Positions 24,808-64,000 of a stretch of 64,000 nucleotides of DNA are shown here, one piece after another. Source of the DNA: Pseudomonadota bacterium (GTDB lineage: Bacteria > Pseudomonadota > Gammaproteobacteria > Burkholderiales > Burkholderiaceae_C); assembly GCA_021848345.1 (NCBI GenBank), contig JAJZUV010000012.1, positions 1 through 64,000 on the forward strand, given 5' to 3'. The notes beneath the pieces were generated by a model. The model saw only the letters and a list, made by a program, of their open reading frames with translations, did not search any database and was not told the DNA's origin. Numbering within the stretch: the first letter of the stretch is position 1; every line of letters begins with the position of its first letter. A program made the position numbers and the translations under genes.

Positions 24808-24838
24808 AAAAAAAAAGGCCGCCTCGGCGGCGGCCTTT
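24808..24838 (-). terminator. intrinsic terminator downstream of pntB
   Basis: Minus-strand stem GGCCGCC-GCCGA-GGCGGCC followed by nine T residues; a textbook intrinsic terminator about 55 bp after the pntB stop. It separates pnt transcription from hns. Confidence 0.92.
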
Positions 24839-24893
24839 CTCGGGAATCCGGGACACTCCGCTATGCCGGAGCGCGCATTCCCAGGCTGTCCCG

Positions 24894-58940: not shown

Positions 58941-60104
58941 TCACTTCGTTTCACGCGAACGACGCTCGCGCACGGCGTCGGCGAGTTCGTCCATCAGGAG
59001 CAGCGAATCCTCCCATCCCAGGCAGGCGTCGGTGATGCTCTGGCCGTAGCGCAGCGCGGCAGGATCGTGCTGGCCGGGGTTGAACTTCTGCGCCCCGTCG
59101 AGCAAGTGGCTTTCCGCCATCACGCCGAAGATGCAGCGCTCGCCGGCGCGCAGTTGCGCGCCGATGTCGCGCGCCACATCCAGCTGGCGCTCGTGCTTTT
59201 TCTCGCTGTTGGCGTGCGAGCAATCGATCATCAGCCGGCATTCCAGCGCCGCCGCGTGCAACTGCTCGCAGGCCGCGCGCACGCTGTGCGCGTCGTAGTT
59301 GGGCTTCTTGCCGCCACGCAGGATCACGTGGGTGTCCTGGTTGCCGCGGGTCTGCACGATCGAGACCTGGCCGCTCTTGTGCACCGACAGGAAGGAATGC
59401 GGCCGGCGCGAAGCCAGGATGGCGTCGATGGCGATGCGCAGGTTGCCGTCGGTGCCGTTCTTGAACCCGATCGGCGCCGACAGCCCCGACGCCAGCTCGC
59501 GGTGCACCTGGCTCTCCGTGGTGCGCGCGCCGATCGCCCCCCAGGAGATGAGGTCGCCGATGTACTGCGGCGAAATCACGTCCAGGAACTCGCTGCCCGC
59601 GGGCACGCCCAGGCGATTGATGTCGATCAGCAGCTCGCGCGCGATGCGCAGCCCGTCGTCGATGCGGTAACTCTGGTCCAGGTAGGGGTCGTTGATCAGC
59701 CCCTTCCAGCCCACCGTGGTGCGCGGCTTCTCGAAGTACACCCGCATCACCACCTCGAGTTCGCCGGCATGGCGCCGGCGCTGCTCGGCCAGGCGCTGCG
59801 CGTATTCGAGCGCCGCGCGCGGATCGTGGATGGAGCAGGGGCCGATGACCAGCAACATCCGGTCGTCCTGCCCCTGCACGATGCGGTGCACCGCGCGCCG
59901 CGTGTCGCCGATCAGGGTCTCGACCGCGGAGCCGGCGATGGGCAGGCGGCGGATCAGCTGCTCGGGGGTGGGCAGCGGGCGCACGTCCTCGACGCGTTCG
60001 TCGTCGGTGGCCGAGGTGCGTTCCTTGGCAGGCGGCACGGAGGCCGTGCCCGCCGCCGGCGGCTCGGGAATGAAATCGGGACTGGAAGGATCGAGCACGG
60101 ACAT
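58941..60104 (-). CDS. aroG: 3-deoxy-7-phosphoheptulonate (DAHP) synthase, class I
   Basis: 387-residue enzyme of the AroF/G/H type that condenses PEP and erythrose-4-phosphate, the entry step to aromatic amino acids. LLVIGPCSIHDPRAALEYA, RVYFEKPRTTVGWKGLIND, GARTTESQVHRELASGLS, GFKNGTDGNL and DCSHANSEKKHERQ are present. The N terminus has about 45 extra low-complexity residues. ATG 60104 has GGAG eight bases upstream. It is preceded by a leader peptide and terminator that together look like an attenuator, so transcription is probably controlled by charged aromatic tRNAs. Confidence 0.96.
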   Translation of the reverse strand: MSVLDPSSPDFIPEPPAAGTASVPPAKERTSATDDERVEDVRPLPTPEQLIRRLPIAGSAVETLIGDTRRAVHRIVQGQDDRMLLVIGPCSIHDPRAALEYAQRLAEQRRRHAGELEVVMRVYFEKPRTTVGWKGLINDPYLDQSYRIDDGLRIARELLIDINRLGVPAGSEFLDVISPQYIGDLISWGAIGARTTESQVHRELASGLSAPIGFKNGTDGNLRIAIDAILASRRPHSFLSVHKSGQVSIVQTRGNQDTHVILRGGKKPNYDAHSVRAACEQLHAAALECRLMIDCSHANSEKKHERQLDVARDIGAQLRAGERCIFGVMAESHLLDGAQKFNPGQHDPAALRYGQSITDACLGWEDSLLLMDELADAVRERRSRETK

Positions 60105-60144
60105 CTCCTGGGGCTCCTGCTGAGGTGGTCCGGCACGCCCGGCG

Positions 60145-60173
60145 AAAAAAAACCGCCGGGCTTGGCCGGCGGT
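60145..60173 (-). terminator. attenuator terminator in the aroG leader
   Basis: Minus-strand stem AACCGCCGG-CCAAGC-CCGGCGGTT followed by T8, 41 bp upstream of aroG and 20 bp after the leader-peptide stop. Its 5' arm (CCGCCGGC, 60172-60165) is perfectly complementary to GCCGGCGG (60226-60219) inside the leader coding region, which allows a competing antiterminator. Confidence 0.9.
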
Positions 60174-60193
60174 TTCTTGAGGAATTCTGGGGT

Positions 60194-60277
60194 TCAGCTC
60201 AGACTCTGCCCTCTCCCTCCGCCGGCGCGGTGCGAGAATCCAAAAAAGCCGTAAAACCAGAAGCGGGCGGAATGCAT
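60194..60277 (-). CDS. aromatic-rich leader peptide of the aroG attenuator
   Basis: 27-codon ORF, ATG 60277 to TGA 60194. Residues 6-14 read FWFYGFFGF: five Phe, one Trp and one Tyr in nine codons. This is far beyond chance and is the hallmark of a ribosome-stalling leader peptide. Segment TCCGCC (60271-60266, codons 3-4) can pair with GGCGGA in codons 20-21. When a ribosome stalls at the aromatic codons that pairing would be blocked, and GCCGGCGG would be free to pair with the terminator's 5' arm. An in-frame upstream extension to 60382 is ignored because the -10 element lies at 60306-60301. The ribosome-binding site is weak. Confidence 0.85.
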   Translation of the reverse strand: MHSARFWFYGFFGFSHRAGGGRGQSLS

Positions 60278-60300
60278 GGCGGAAAAGGGTTTGCGTGCTG

Positions 60301-60306
60301 AGTATA
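60301..60306 (-). promoter_or_regulatory. aroG leader -10 element
   Basis: TATACT on the minus strand, about 24 bp upstream of the leader-peptide ATG. This spacing leaves a short 5' UTR as in classical attenuators. No convincing -35 hexamer is found in the GC-rich upstream bases. Confidence 0.5.
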
Positions 60307-60341
60307 ACCACGCCCCGACGCCAGCGCCAGGGCCAGGGACT

Positions 60342-60887
60342 TCAGCCCCGGCGCGGCCACATGCGGCGCAGCGTGTCGTCACGCTCGATCACCGCGTGGA
60401 ACAACGCTCCGGCCACGTGCAGGCCGATGGCGCCCAGCAGCACGTAGGCCACCACCTGGTGCACGTCACCCATCTCGTGCGCCCAGCCGGCGCCCGTGGG
60501 CGCCAGCGCCGGCAGTCCCACCAGGCCCGCCAGGTGCACCGTCCAGCCGCGCGAGGAGGCGTTGATCCAGCCCAGCACCGGCAGCACCAGGAAGCCCGCG
60601 TACAGCACCACGTGCACCAGCTTGGCCAGATGCTGCTGCCAGGTCGGCCCGGGAAGCAGCGCCGGTGCGCCGGTGGCGCCGCGCCACAGCAGGCGCAGCA
60701 CCATCAGCGCCAGGATGCTGGTGCCCACGCCGATGTGCCAGGCGATCAGCCCTACGGGCTGGGTGTCCCGGCGCACGTCCGGCATCAGCCAGGCGAGCCC
60801 GAACTCGGCCGCGATCAACAGGAAGATCGACCAGTGCAGCGCACGGGCGACCGGGTTATAGACGGAAGGTTGGGCGGCTTGGTTCAT
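60342..60887 (-). CDS. cytochrome b561 family protein
   Basis: 181-residue four-helix membrane cytochrome of the bacterial b561 (CybB) family. Putative haem-ligand His residues are in ARALHWSIFLLIA, IAWHIGVGTSILALM, LAKLVHVVLYAGFL and GDVHQVVAYVLLGAIGLHVAGAL. CybB proteins pass electrons between quinols and oxygen or other carriers. ATG 60887; 36 bp upstream of the aroG leader -10. Confidence 0.9.
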   Translation of the reverse strand: MNQAAQPSVYNPVARALHWSIFLLIAAEFGLAWLMPDVRRDTQPVGLIAWHIGVGTSILALMVLRLLWRGATGAPALLPGPTWQQHLAKLVHVVLYAGFLVLPVLGWINASSRGWTVHLAGLVGLPALAPTGAGWAHEMGDVHQVVAYVLLGAIGLHVAGALFHAVIERDDTLRRMWPRRG

Positions 60888-62623: not shown

Positions 62624-63202
62624 ATGCGACGACATCACATCTGCCTCGGAGACGCGACCACCGGGGGAGGTGTCGTGGCCAGCGCCTCCTCGACTTTCAC
62701 CATCCTGGGACGGCCCGCGGCGCTCGAGGGCGACACCATCGAATGCCGGGCCTGCAAGTCCGCCGGGGTGATCGCCTGCGCGGGGCCGCGCCACCTCGAC
62801 ACCTTCAACGGCCGCGCCCTGGCGCTCGAAGGCGACCTGTGCATGTGCCGATGCCAGGAGCATCCCCAGCTGGTGGCCGGCCAGCAAAGCAGTTTCCACA
62901 CCCTGGACGGGATCGGTACCGACCTGTCGCCCGCACCAGCGCATGAGGCGCGGCACGATGGCGCGGACGCCCTCGCCACCTCCGATCGGGTGCACACGAT
63001 AAGCCCTTGCCGTGGATCGGGTTCCGGCTCGACGAGGCTTCGAGTTGCGAAGGGGTTTCATGTCGGATCCTGTTTGACGATGGCTCGCAGGCCTGGGCCA
63101 CCTGCATGGCTGGCAACCGGCTGCGTCTGCACGGAGTCGGGGCGAACAGCGCGCTGCGAATCGAGTATTGCCTCGATCAGGCCGACAGCGTTGCGTCCCT
63201 GA
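62624..63202 (+). CDS. PAAR-domain protein, apparently frameshifted near its C terminus
   Basis: PAAR-type spike-tip protein of type VI secretion systems. Residues 1 to about 95 hold the Cys-rich domain: GDATTGGGVVASASSTFTILG, DTIECRACKSAGV, DLCMCRCQEHPQLVAGQ. After about residue 125 (position 62999) the frame has no family character, while the -1 frame continues with a second domain (next entry). Adding one A at 63001 would fuse both into a 203-residue protein. GC content and third-position GC are lower than in the housekeeping genes, suggesting acquired DNA. Confidence 0.75.
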   Translation: MRRHHICLGDATTGGGVVASASSTFTILGRPAALEGDTIECRACKSAGVIACAGPRHLDTFNGRALALEGDLCMCRCQEHPQLVAGQQSSFHTLDGIGTDLSPAPAHEARHDGADALATSDRVHTISPCRGSGSGSTRLRVAKGFHVGSCLTMARRPGPPAWLATGCVCTESGRTARCESSIASIRPTALRP

Positions 63203-63234
63203 CCGCCCTGCTGCTTGAAAGGATCGCCACATGA
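63007..63234 (+). CDS. small beta-rich domain, probably the C-terminal half of the PAAR protein
   Basis: 75 codons from TTG 63007. WIGFRLDEASSCEGVSCRILFDDGSQAWATCMAGNRLRLHGVG (split) resembles the carboxypeptidase-regulatory-like or Rhs/VgrG-linked beta-sandwich repeats that often follow PAAR domains on one polypeptide. If the frameshift is real it may be translated on its own or lost. Its stop overlaps the start of the next gene by ATGA, so the two are coupled. Confidence 0.55.
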   Translation: MPWIGFRLDEASSCEGVSCRILFDDGSQAWATCMAGNRLRLHGVGANSALRIEYCLDQADSVASLTALLLERIAT

Positions 63235-64000
63235 AAGCCCCGACCCCGGCTGTCGGCGCGCCGGAACATCAGCTGCCCGCACTGCAAGGCCCCTTCGCCG
63301 TGGGCCAGGAACACGAGCTGCCCAGTCCTCTGCAACTGGCTCGCGACGAATTCGAGGCCGCCGCCAGTCGCTTCGCGACAGACGCTATCCGCGACGCCGG
63401 GCTGCGCCAACTCTACAAGAGCAATATCCAGCGCATTTCGCGCGAGGTCCAGGCCGAGGTCGACGCCGGGAGGGTCAGCGTCCTGGAGGGCGCGAGATTC
63501 TGCCAGCGCATGCGCAACCAGATCATGGAAGAGACGCGCGTGGCTTCCTCGGCGCAGGGGCGGGCGTATGCGGAGTCGATGAAAAAAGATGGGCCGTCGC
63601 TGAGGGCGCTGCTGGACAAATATGCCGTCGAGCACTTCCAGCGCCCGTTCGAAGGACTGTCCGAGGTGGAGAAGAGCAAGGTCTTCTACAGCGTCATCGA
63701 GTCGGCGTCACGCGACCGCTCCAAAGTGAGCGCCGCCACGAGACGCCTGGGGATCCTTGGAAAGGTCGGTTTGGTCGTTACCGCCATCCTGGCAGTACAC
63801 GCGGTGGCCGTGGCGGACGACAAGCCCACGGAGGCGATCCGACAAGGAGTCCTGATCGGCGGCGGAATGGTAGGCGGTAGCGTCGCCGGAGCGGTTCTCG
63901 CGGCTCCGCTTTGCGGTCCGGGCGCGGTCGTGTGCGCAGTCGCCATCGTGCTGTTGGGTAGTGTGGCCGGCAGCCTTGTCGCCGAATCCTGGGTGGGGAC
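63231..64000 (+). CDS. putative type VI effector with glycine-zipper membrane segments (cut by window edge)
   Basis: At least 256 residues, running off the window. Not recognised as a named family. Residues 1-160 look helical and charged (LARDEFEAAASRFATDAIRDAGLR; YAVEHFQRPFEGLSEVEKSKVFY, both split). Residues 170-255 contain a hydrophobic helix (GILGKVGLVVTAILAVHAVAVA) and two glycine-zipper stretches (QGVLIGGGMVGGSVAGAVLA; VVCAVAIVLLGSVAGSL), as in membrane-acting toxins. Coupled to the PAAR cluster. An immunity gene would be expected just beyond the edge. Confidence 0.55.
   Translation, partial: MKAPTPAVGAPEHQLPALQGPFAVGQEHELPSPLQLARDEFEAAASRFATDAIRDAGLRQLYKSNIQRISREVQAEVDAGRVSVLEGARFCQRMRNQIMEETRVASSAQGRAYAESMKKDGPSLRALLDKYAVEHFQRPFEGLSEVEKSKVFYSVIESASRDRSKVSAATRRLGILGKVGLVVTAILAVHAVAVADDKPTEAIRQGVLIGGGMVGGSVAGAVLAAPLCGPGAVVCAVAIVLLGSVAGSLVAESWVG

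What the first reader, a model, noticed from the sequence alone, without database searches (positions are those of the whole stretch)
60145..60306. Complete aromatic-amino-acid attenuator in front of aroG (DAHP synthase)
The sequence shows a 27-codon leader peptide with FWFYGFFGF at codons 6-14, an intrinsic terminator (stem plus T8) before aroG, and perfectly matched alternative pairings. Segment 1 (TCCGCC, 60271-60266) can pair with segment 2 (GGCGGA, inside GCCGGCGGA at 60226-60218). Segment 2 (GCCGGCGG) can instead pair with the terminator's 5' arm (CCGCCGGC, 60172-60165). Stalling on Phe/Trp/Tyr codons would favour the antiterminator. Classical attenuators are known for trp and phe genes; one that reads Phe, Tyr and Trp together for a DAHP synthase is, as far as I can recall, unusual. 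It would let one enzyme sense all three end products.
Basis: partly seen in the sequence, partly recalled or inferred. Interest (0 to 1): 0.88.

Follow-up and report, generated by a model that had tools for sequence, protein, structure and literature searches.

The report
Aromatic amino acid attenuator before aroG
A tiny reading frame packed with phenylalanine, tyrosine and tryptophan codons sits just before the gene for the first enzyme of aromatic amino acid synthesis and, judging from its conserved anatomy, probably lets the cell make that enzyme only when those amino acids run short.

Summary
On the minus strand a 27-codon ORF with FWFYGFFGF precedes an intrinsic terminator and aroG, and the terminator's 5' arm is exactly complementary to a segment inside the ORF. 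It is not chance: 90 of 103 AroG-bearing loci (fetched by protein similarity) have an aromatic-rich leader ORF upstream, and leaders occur in at least 14 families of the order.

Best reading: a classical ribosome-mediated transcription attenuator of DAHP synthase. In the window the codons at which a stalled ribosome would free the antiterminator (6-14) are exactly the aromatic run.

Corrections: (1) segment 2's main upstream partner is a compact hairpin just after the aromatic codons, not TCCGCC at codons 3-4. (2) Phe and Tyr are near-universal (153 and 148 of 153 leaders); Trp is in 106, all three in 102. (3) Attenuators of DAHP synthases have precedents (C. glutamicum aroR, Acholeplasma uORFC-13-1).

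New: leaders lack a Shine-Dalgarno motif (0 of 90), and in 76 of 153 an extended -10 ends 6-9 nt before the ATG, suggesting leaderless leader mRNAs (not in the window, which seems to have a short UTR). No Rfam, Pfam or NCBIfam match and no paper found describing it. No expression data.

The parts
60301..60306 (-). candidate -10 hexamer TATACT, ends 23 nt before the leader ATG; would give a 5' UTR of about 15-19 nt (inferred)
   Evidence: TATACT also in the same-genus locus L088; not mapped; the consensus scan found no promoter
60325..60330 (-). weak candidate -35 (CTGGCG), 18 nt spacer
   Evidence: 3 of 6 matches
60194..60277 (-). leader ORF MHSARFWFYGFFGFSHRAGGGRGQSLS, no Shine-Dalgarno-like motif upstream
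60236..60262 (-). control codons 6-14: F W F Y G F F G F (5 Phe, 1 Trp, 1 Tyr, 2 Gly)
   Evidence: aromatic run conserved in relatives
60227..60238 (-). 5' arm of the local 1:2 hairpin, TTCTCGCACCGC
   Evidence: (z -2.0 in the window)
60211..60222 (-). 3' arm of the local 1:2 hairpin, GCGGAGGGAGAG; the GAGAG is kept beyond the stop codon in L021, L047 and L050
60219..60226 (-). segment 2, GCCGGCGG (5' side of the antiterminator)
60165..60172 (-). segment 3, CCGCCGGC; pairs with segment 2 (8 bp) or, in the terminator, with segment 4
60145..60175 (-). intrinsic terminator: 10-bp stem, 6-nt loop, T8
60114..60118 (-). Shine-Dalgarno AGGAG of aroG
   Evidence: an SD-like motif before an in-frame aroG ATG in 79 of 90 loci
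58941..60104 (-). aroG, 3-deoxy-7-phosphoheptulonate (DAHP) synthase, 387 aa
   Evidence: TIGR00034 E 1.8e-156

Best explanation
It is a ribosome-mediated transcription attenuator of aroG. Transcription starts about 15-19 nt before the leader ATG (inferred) and a ribosome follows RNA polymerase through the leader ORF (inferred). If charged tRNA for Phe, Tyr or Trp is short, the ribosome stalls within codons 6-14; its front edge then lies short of segment 2, so segment 2 pairs with segment 3 as that emerges, the terminator cannot form in time, and aroG is transcribed. If the charged tRNAs are plentiful, the ribosome runs on over segment 2 to the stop codon seven codons further, segment 2 is covered or re-paired in the local 1:2 hairpin, segments 3 and 4 form the terminator, and transcription ends at about 60145. 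Shown by sequence and comparison: leader, terminator, exclusive pairings, their conservation, stall geometry. Inferred: transcription start, translation, stalling, read-through, and which amino acid matters most. Codon counts suggest Phe first, then Tyr, with Trp an added input in this lineage.
For: Leader: 90 of 103 loci with an AroG motif (110 fetched; the best 80 of 589 and 30 of 197 hit genomes) have an aromatic-rich short ORF upstream. Terminator: 90 of 90 of these match CCGCC...GGCGGT plus T run downstream; a stricter finder with an uninterrupted stem finds 73 of 90. The pair next to the invariant core is GC in 66, AU in 19, UA in 2 of 88. 2:3 helix: 5 or more contiguous pairs in 88 of 90, and just beyond the core 79 of 90 pair against 64 in shuffles, maximum 70. 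Stall geometry: in the window P(2:3) is 0.06-0.07 with the A site at codons 3-5, 0.92-0.95 at codons 6-14, and 0 at codon 15, where segment 2 counts as covered; over relatives the last stall codon that leaves GGCGG free is within 1 codon of the last aromatic codon in 81 of 90, exact in 46. The leader stop lies 0-9 codons beyond GGCGG in 90 of 90. Leaders use TTT for 62% of Phe against 15% in aroG, TAT for 46% of Tyr against 18%. The genome's second AroG copy has no such leader.
Against: No expression, start-site or ribosome data. With segment 4 present, equilibrium folding favours the terminator even with a stalled ribosome (mean P(3:4) 0.78-0.86; P(2:3) above 0.5 in 14 of 90, 16 of 89, 17 of 88 and 9 of 64 at the last four positions; window 0-0.19), so the antiterminator must win kinetically. 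The sharp switch at codon 6 is a feature of the window: averaged over relatives P(2:3) is already 0.57-0.73 well before the aromatic run and 0.41 with no ribosome, so 1:2 is not a firm off-switch. The GGCGG and CCGCC cores were search anchors, so their invariance is partly by construction. The 1:2 helix is weakly supported by covariation: 86.8% of cells paired, but only 6 of the 27 doubly changed cells are in it, the other 21 being one terminator pair, and two of five measures do not exceed shuffles; its hairpin z-score is below -1 in 52 of 90. In the cross-species pairing test only the Burkholderia-type group pairs 2:3 clearly best with its own partner. Related sequences inflate all such counts. 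The promoter is weak by consensus.
Confidence: 0.88

Rival explanations
1. Same attenuator, but in effect a Phe (or Phe/Tyr) sensor; the Trp codon is incidental and Trp starvation changes little.
For: Phe in 153 of 153 leaders, mean 4.5 codons in the core; Tyr in 148, mean 1.8; Trp in 106, mean 0.7; 46 leaders have only Phe and Tyr, 1 only Phe. In C. glutamicum aroR the leader reads Phe-Tyr-Phe yet Tyr availability is said not to matter (PMC11802643 section 7, passage).
Against: Trp is kept in the three same-genus loci (L087, L088, L089) and in near relatives L007, L090, L091, and the commonest endings of the run, FYFWF and AYFWF, put Trp right before the local hairpin. A single codon for a rare amino acid can suffice elsewhere (recalled).
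Confidence: 0.35
2. A nascent-chain arrest peptide (TnaC-like) that senses free aromatic amino acids in the ribosome rather than uncharged tRNA.
For: An aromatic run is kept across at least 14 families.
Against: Order and spacing of F, Y and W vary (FWFYGFFGF, FYFAYFWF, FWFGFYF, HWFFFGFF, SFYAFFGFF) while composition is kept; GAGAG after the run is kept even beyond the stop codon in L021, L047 and L050, so part of the conservation is of RNA. Arrest peptides need fixed residues at fixed positions (recalled).
Confidence: 0.04
3. The hairpin is just the terminator of the upstream cytochrome b561-like gene, and the ORF is a by-product.
For: The b561-like ORF ends at 60342, 167 nt before the stem.
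Against: Leader ORF, terminator and their complementarity recur in 90 of 103 AroG loci, and -10-like elements lie between the upstream gene and the leader in the window and in many relatives.
Confidence: 0.02
4. Besides acting in cis, the terminated leader RNA or its peptide acts in trans, as rnTrpL and peTrpL do in Sinorhizobium meliloti.
For: Apparent leaderless starts in half the leaders and the S. meliloti precedent (PMC7298713, passages).
Against: No direct evidence and not tested; peptide ends vary widely between families.
Confidence: 0.1

Closest known systems
Corynebacterium glutamicum aroR, leader of aroF (DAHP synthase); Neshat et al. 2014, not read, known here from passages of PMC11802643 and PMC4046766
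   Same: Leader-peptide attenuation of a DAHP synthase with aromatic control codons (Phe-Tyr-Phe).
   Different: Actinobacterium; the reported motif is only Phe-Tyr-Phe, without Trp; said to answer Phe, not Tyr. No sequence comparison was run.
Escherichia coli pheL-pheA attenuator (named in PMC11802643; details recalled)
   Same: A Phe-rich control run, alternative pairings, terminator before the gene.
   Different: One amino acid and a terminal-branch enzyme; leader with a Shine-Dalgarno (recalled). No gathering-level Rfam match of our element.
Sinorhizobium meliloti trpL-trpE(G) (PMC7298713, passages)
   Same: A proteobacterial attenuator whose transcript starts at the leader ATG (leaderless).
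   Different: Reads Trp; 14-aa leader; the window itself does not look leaderless.
uORFC-13-1 before aroF in Acholeplasma (PMC8632094, passage)
   Same: Predicted Phe-codon uORF and terminator before a DAHP synthase.
   Different: At least one Phe codon only; another phylum and another structure.
Rfam RF02917 Burkholderiales-2
   Same: Weak match over the terminator region (25.7 bits).
   Different: Far below its gathering score of 67.9.

Membership tests
Ribosome-mediated (leader peptide) transcription attenuators | Short leader ORF with a run of codons for the pathway's end products | tested here: met
   FWFYGFFGF; leader in 90 of 103 AroG loci; F in 153, Y in 148, W in 106 of 153 leaders
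Ribosome-mediated (leader peptide) transcription attenuators | Intrinsic terminator between leader and structural gene | tested here: met
   Window: 10-bp stem, T8. Relatives: 90 of 90 leader loci match the loose pattern, 73 of 90 a strict finder; 99.6% of stem cells paired in 88
Ribosome-mediated (leader peptide) transcription attenuators | Mutually exclusive antiterminator (2:3) | tested here: met
   5 or more contiguous pairs in 88 of 90, on a GGCGG-type anchor; one position beyond the core varies together
Ribosome-mediated (leader peptide) transcription attenuators | 1:2 protector or pause hairpin | tested here: inconclusive
   Present in the window (-15.0 kcal/mol, z -2.0); 86.8% of cells paired but only 6 doubly changed cells; z below -1 in 52 of 90, Burkholderia-type group mean -0.39
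Ribosome-mediated (leader peptide) transcription attenuators | Stall positions leave segment 2 free; completed translation covers it | tested here: met
   Within 1 codon in 81 of 90, with an assumed ribosome edge 13 nt past the A site (recalled)
Ribosome-mediated (leader peptide) transcription attenuators | Read-through rises when the cognate charged tRNA is short | not testable with these tools
   needs an experiment
Rfam RF02917 Burkholderiales-2 | Score at or above the gathering cut-off | tested here: not met
   25.7 against 67.9 bits; no gathering hit in the window or in 20 relatives
Leaderless leader ORF (as in S. meliloti trpL and actinobacterial attenuators) | Transcription starts at the leader ATG | tested here: inconclusive
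   Extended -10 ends 6-9 nt before the ATG in 76 of 153 leaders against 0.4 in shuffles; in the window 23 nt; no start site measured

The most novel reading that the evidence does not exclude
An undescribed, order-wide sensor that pools the charging state of three tRNAs to set the entry step of the aromatic pathway, and whose leader ORF is started without a Shine-Dalgarno, in about half the leaders straight from the 5' end of the transcript, so that ribosome and polymerase are synchronised from the first codon. The Trp input would be a lineage-specific gain or loss on a Phe/Tyr core.
Probability: 0.45. Interest if true: 0.62.

Novelty: new variant of a known kind. Interest (0 to 1): 0.5.

Why it matters
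DAHP synthase is the committed entry to Phe, Tyr and Trp. In E. coli its isozymes are repressed by TyrR and TrpR (PMC11802643, passage); here one RNA would integrate the end products. The element is conserved enough to serve as a natural series: lineages with and without Trp codons, and with and without leaderless starts, let one ask how a leader peptide weighs several amino acids and whether Shine-Dalgarno-free starts help couple ribosome and polymerase. It also gives a rule for annotating a class of short ORFs, and a regulatory part for aromatic-compound work in laboratory beta-proteobacteria.

Tried and rejected
RF02917 membership: rejected on score. Arrest peptide: disfavoured by the free order of residues. 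The first leader scan did not turn minus-strand loci round and so missed many; one search replaced it.

Limits of the surveys. The order-wide model search gave 114 of 399 genomes with strict filters. Of its 14 rows with E above 1e-4 I fetched 12: 11 have no AroG motif and 1 (L186) has a leader, so the tally holds false hits; strict filters also lose true ones. Of all 90 loci taken from that search (L118-L207), 14 lack the motif, 3 have the motif but no leader by script (L140, L151, L202) and 73 have one; L129 and L196, without the motif, look like real leaders by eye. Class-wide, of 9 hits in 274 genomes 3 are of the window's family, 2 (one other family) are real aroG leaders and 4 have no AroG motif. 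Of 28 AroG loci from outside the order (L215-L242), 26 have the motif and 1 (L233) a leader with a T run; aromatic ORFs in L219 and L221 have no T run and were discounted. Other attenuators in the same genome: no aromatic leader on the coding strand of the pheA stretch and no convincing Trp leader in the trpE stretch, quick scans only. Leader peptides match nothing in NCBIfam or Pfam (six peptides).

Cross-species pairing told both ways: native mean -16.0 against -14.5 kcal/mol crossed for 2:3, -11.8 against -11.4 for 1:2, -17.0 against -15.8 for 3:4; but for 2:3 only the Burkholderia-type group, and for 1:2 only the Oxalobacteraceae-type and (barely) no other group, do clearly best with their own partner.

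Papers: 10 searches of the held library listed none that describes a beta-proteobacterial aroG attenuator. I saw passages only of PMC11802643, PMC2965389, PMC4046766, PMC1262725, PMC8632094, PMC7298713, PMC11857589, PMC1183508, PMC5688073, PMC2659441, PMC8694188 and PMC8079986. Vitreschak 2004 and Neshat 2014 were not read, nor any supplement; the premature-terminator survey PMC2965389 and the 82 short 5' UTRs of Burkholderia cenocepacia (PMC5688073) have tables that might include this element.

Rows dropped or changed: 7 of 110 fetched AroG loci lacked the motif, though L044, L081, L082 and L113 show leaders; the L020 leader was replaced by the correct ORF; six of the 73 model-found leaders (L118, L120, L145, L162, L170, L200) were dropped as duplicates or mis-picked ORFs before the counts, leaving 157 leaders, 153 distinct. 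The 67 kept were fetched because they matched the model, so they inform composition, not frequency. Segment 2 anchors of L061, L066, L098 and L099 were set by hand; in 86 other rows they were found by GGCGG-like patterns.

Full report
What is there. After a TATACT element (60306-60301, ending 23 nt before the ATG) comes a 27-codon ORF, then a 10-bp hairpin with T8, then a Shine-Dalgarno and aroG. The gene is DAHP synthase by TIGR00034, E 1.8e-156. Upstream lie a cytochrome b561-like ORF (below the model's cut-off) and tldD; downstream purC. The aromatic ORF is the only one of its kind in the window, and 60 resampled windows gave none. A simple consensus scan found neither promoter nor terminator here.

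Conservation. I fetched 80 named loci by AroG similarity (the best 80 of 589) and 30 from the 197 hit genomes of 200 in the same family. Of the 110, 103 carried my AroG motif, and 90 of those have a short ORF upstream with at least 4 aromatic residues in 10. The 13 without are 3 Polynucleobacter, 2 Methylotenera, 2 Cupriavidus, 2 loci titled as gamma-proteobacterial groups, 3 titled as other phyla, and one truncated contig. Among the 30 from the window's family all 28 with the motif have a leader; these 30 are the best-scoring, not a random sample. A covariance model from 88 sequences, the window included, gave 114 of 399 genomes of the order at E up to 0.001, some of them false at the weak end. 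In the stretches I inspected (family labels), aroG leaders occur in at least 14 families: f1, f3, f4, f8, f10, f11, f12, f13, f20, f23, f30, f32, f40, f44. In 274 class genomes only one family outside the order (f63, two genomes) had real leaders, and of 26 motif-bearing AroG loci from outside the order 1 had a leader with a T run. So this is largely a feature of the order, not of DAHP synthase in general.

RNA anatomy. All 90 leader loci match CCGCC...GGCGGT plus T run downstream; a strict finder that needs an uninterrupted stem accepts 73 of 90. The pair next to the core switches GC (66), AU (19), UA (2) of 88. Segment 2, GGCGG inside the leader ORF, can pair with segment 3 over 5 or more contiguous pairs in 88 of 90; the core is partly an anchor of the search, but the position just beyond it pairs in 79 of 90 against a mean of 64 and a maximum of 70 in 300 shuffles. 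Crossing segments between species, native pairs are on average stronger, most clearly in the Burkholderia-type group: -18.4 kcal/mol with its own segment 2, against -12.0 and -12.1 when its segment 3 meets segment 2 of the two largest other groups; the other groups do not pair 2:3 clearly best with their own partner.

A second, compact hairpin joins UUCUC, at the last aromatic and serine codons, with GAGAG after GGCGG. It pairs in 86.8% of cells, but only 6 of the 27 doubly changed cells of the tested structure lie in it (21 are the terminator pair above; shuffles give 6.4 in all), and two of five measures are no better than shuffles. Its z-score is below -1 in 52 of 90 and -2.0 in the window. 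GAGAG is kept even where the ORF has already stopped (L021, L047, L050), so it is conserved as RNA. Folding the leader without segment 3, GGCGG pairs more with this near stretch than with the codons before the aromatic run in 75 of 90; in the window 3.5 against 0.0 of 5 bases.

Geometry of stalling. With a ribosome edge 13 nt beyond the A site (assumed, recalled), I folded the RNA left free when segment 3 has just been made. In the window P(2:3) is 0.06-0.07 at codons 3-5, jumps to 0.92-0.95 at codons 6-14, and is 0 at codon 15, where segment 2 becomes covered. That interval is exactly the aromatic run. Over relatives the last permissive codon falls within one codon of the last aromatic codon in 81 of 90, exactly in 46. 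The upstream edge is less sharp in relatives: mean P(2:3) is 0.57-0.73 some ten codons before the end of the run and 0.8-0.98 within it. The stop codon lies 0-9 codons beyond segment 2 in all 90, so a ribosome that does not stall must pass over it. A weakness: once segment 4 is included, equilibrium favours the terminator, so the antiterminator must win by forming first.

What it reads. In 153 distinct leaders Phe occurs in all, Tyr in 148, Trp in 106, all three in 102; means 4.5, 1.8 and 0.7 codons in a 12-residue core. Order varies while composition is kept, which favours tRNA charging over a peptide-specific arrest. Leaders prefer TTT (62% against 15% in the sampled part of aroG) and TAT (46% against 18%). 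That one enzyme senses all three products fits the window's lineage but not the whole family; Phe and Tyr are the core.

Translation start. No leader of 90 has AGGA, GGAG or GAGG in -20 to -4, while 79 of 90 loci have one before an in-frame aroG ATG; in the larger set 4 of 153 against 7.2 expected from shuffles. In 76 of 153 a TGNTANNNT element ends 6-9 nt before the ATG, against 0.4 in shuffles, so transcription should begin at or next to the start codon there. The window does not show this; its -10-like element suggests a short UTR without Shine-Dalgarno, and the Burkholderia-type and Oxalobacteraceae-type loci also lack the close element. Leaderless attenuator leaders are known in S. meliloti trpL (PMC7298713, passages) and in actinobacteria (PMC8079986 and PMC11857589, passages).

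Comparison with what is known. C. glutamicum aroR before aroF (PMC11802643 and PMC4046766, passages) and Acholeplasma uORFC-13-1 before aroF (PMC8632094, passage) are functional parallels; an attenuator sensing Tyr-tRNA has been proposed for aroF (PMC2659441, table passage). No Rfam family reaches its cut-off in the window or in 20 relatives, and six leader peptides match no NCBIfam or Pfam model. Ten paper searches listed no description of this element in beta-proteobacteria; Vitreschak 2004, the comparative study most likely to mention it, was not read, so novelty is provisional. I rate it a new variant of a known kind: known mechanism, new combination of target, control run of up to three amino acids, and Shine-Dalgarno-free start.

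Noticed in passing
G000:C28:61572-62648 (L243): The genome has a second AroG copy (59% identical) right after an ORF that I read by eye as aspS, without leader or T run; the two copies are probably regulated differently.
   Followed up: partly
window 62624-63199, +: A PAAR-motif protein (PF05488, E 2.8e-15), typical of type VI secretion tips (recalled), followed by an ORF at 63231-63998 that runs off the window and has no Pfam match.
   Followed up: partly
window about 24816-24840, -: The only other place in the window with a perfect 8-bp hairpin and T7 by the test; it lies between two genes (the second looks H-NS-like by eye) and shows no aromatic leader.
   Followed up: partly
L019, L026, L073: Two AroG loci titled Cupriavidus (L019, L026) lack the leader, a third (L073) has a Trp-less one (MSAKFYFYFFSDLT); possibly paralogues that gained or lost it.
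   Followed up: no
L102, L132, L137, L141, L154, L165: In several lineages the run is extreme, for example MKFTRFFFFFYFSYS or MTRRFFFFFYYF, with up to 9 aromatic residues in 10.
   Followed up: no
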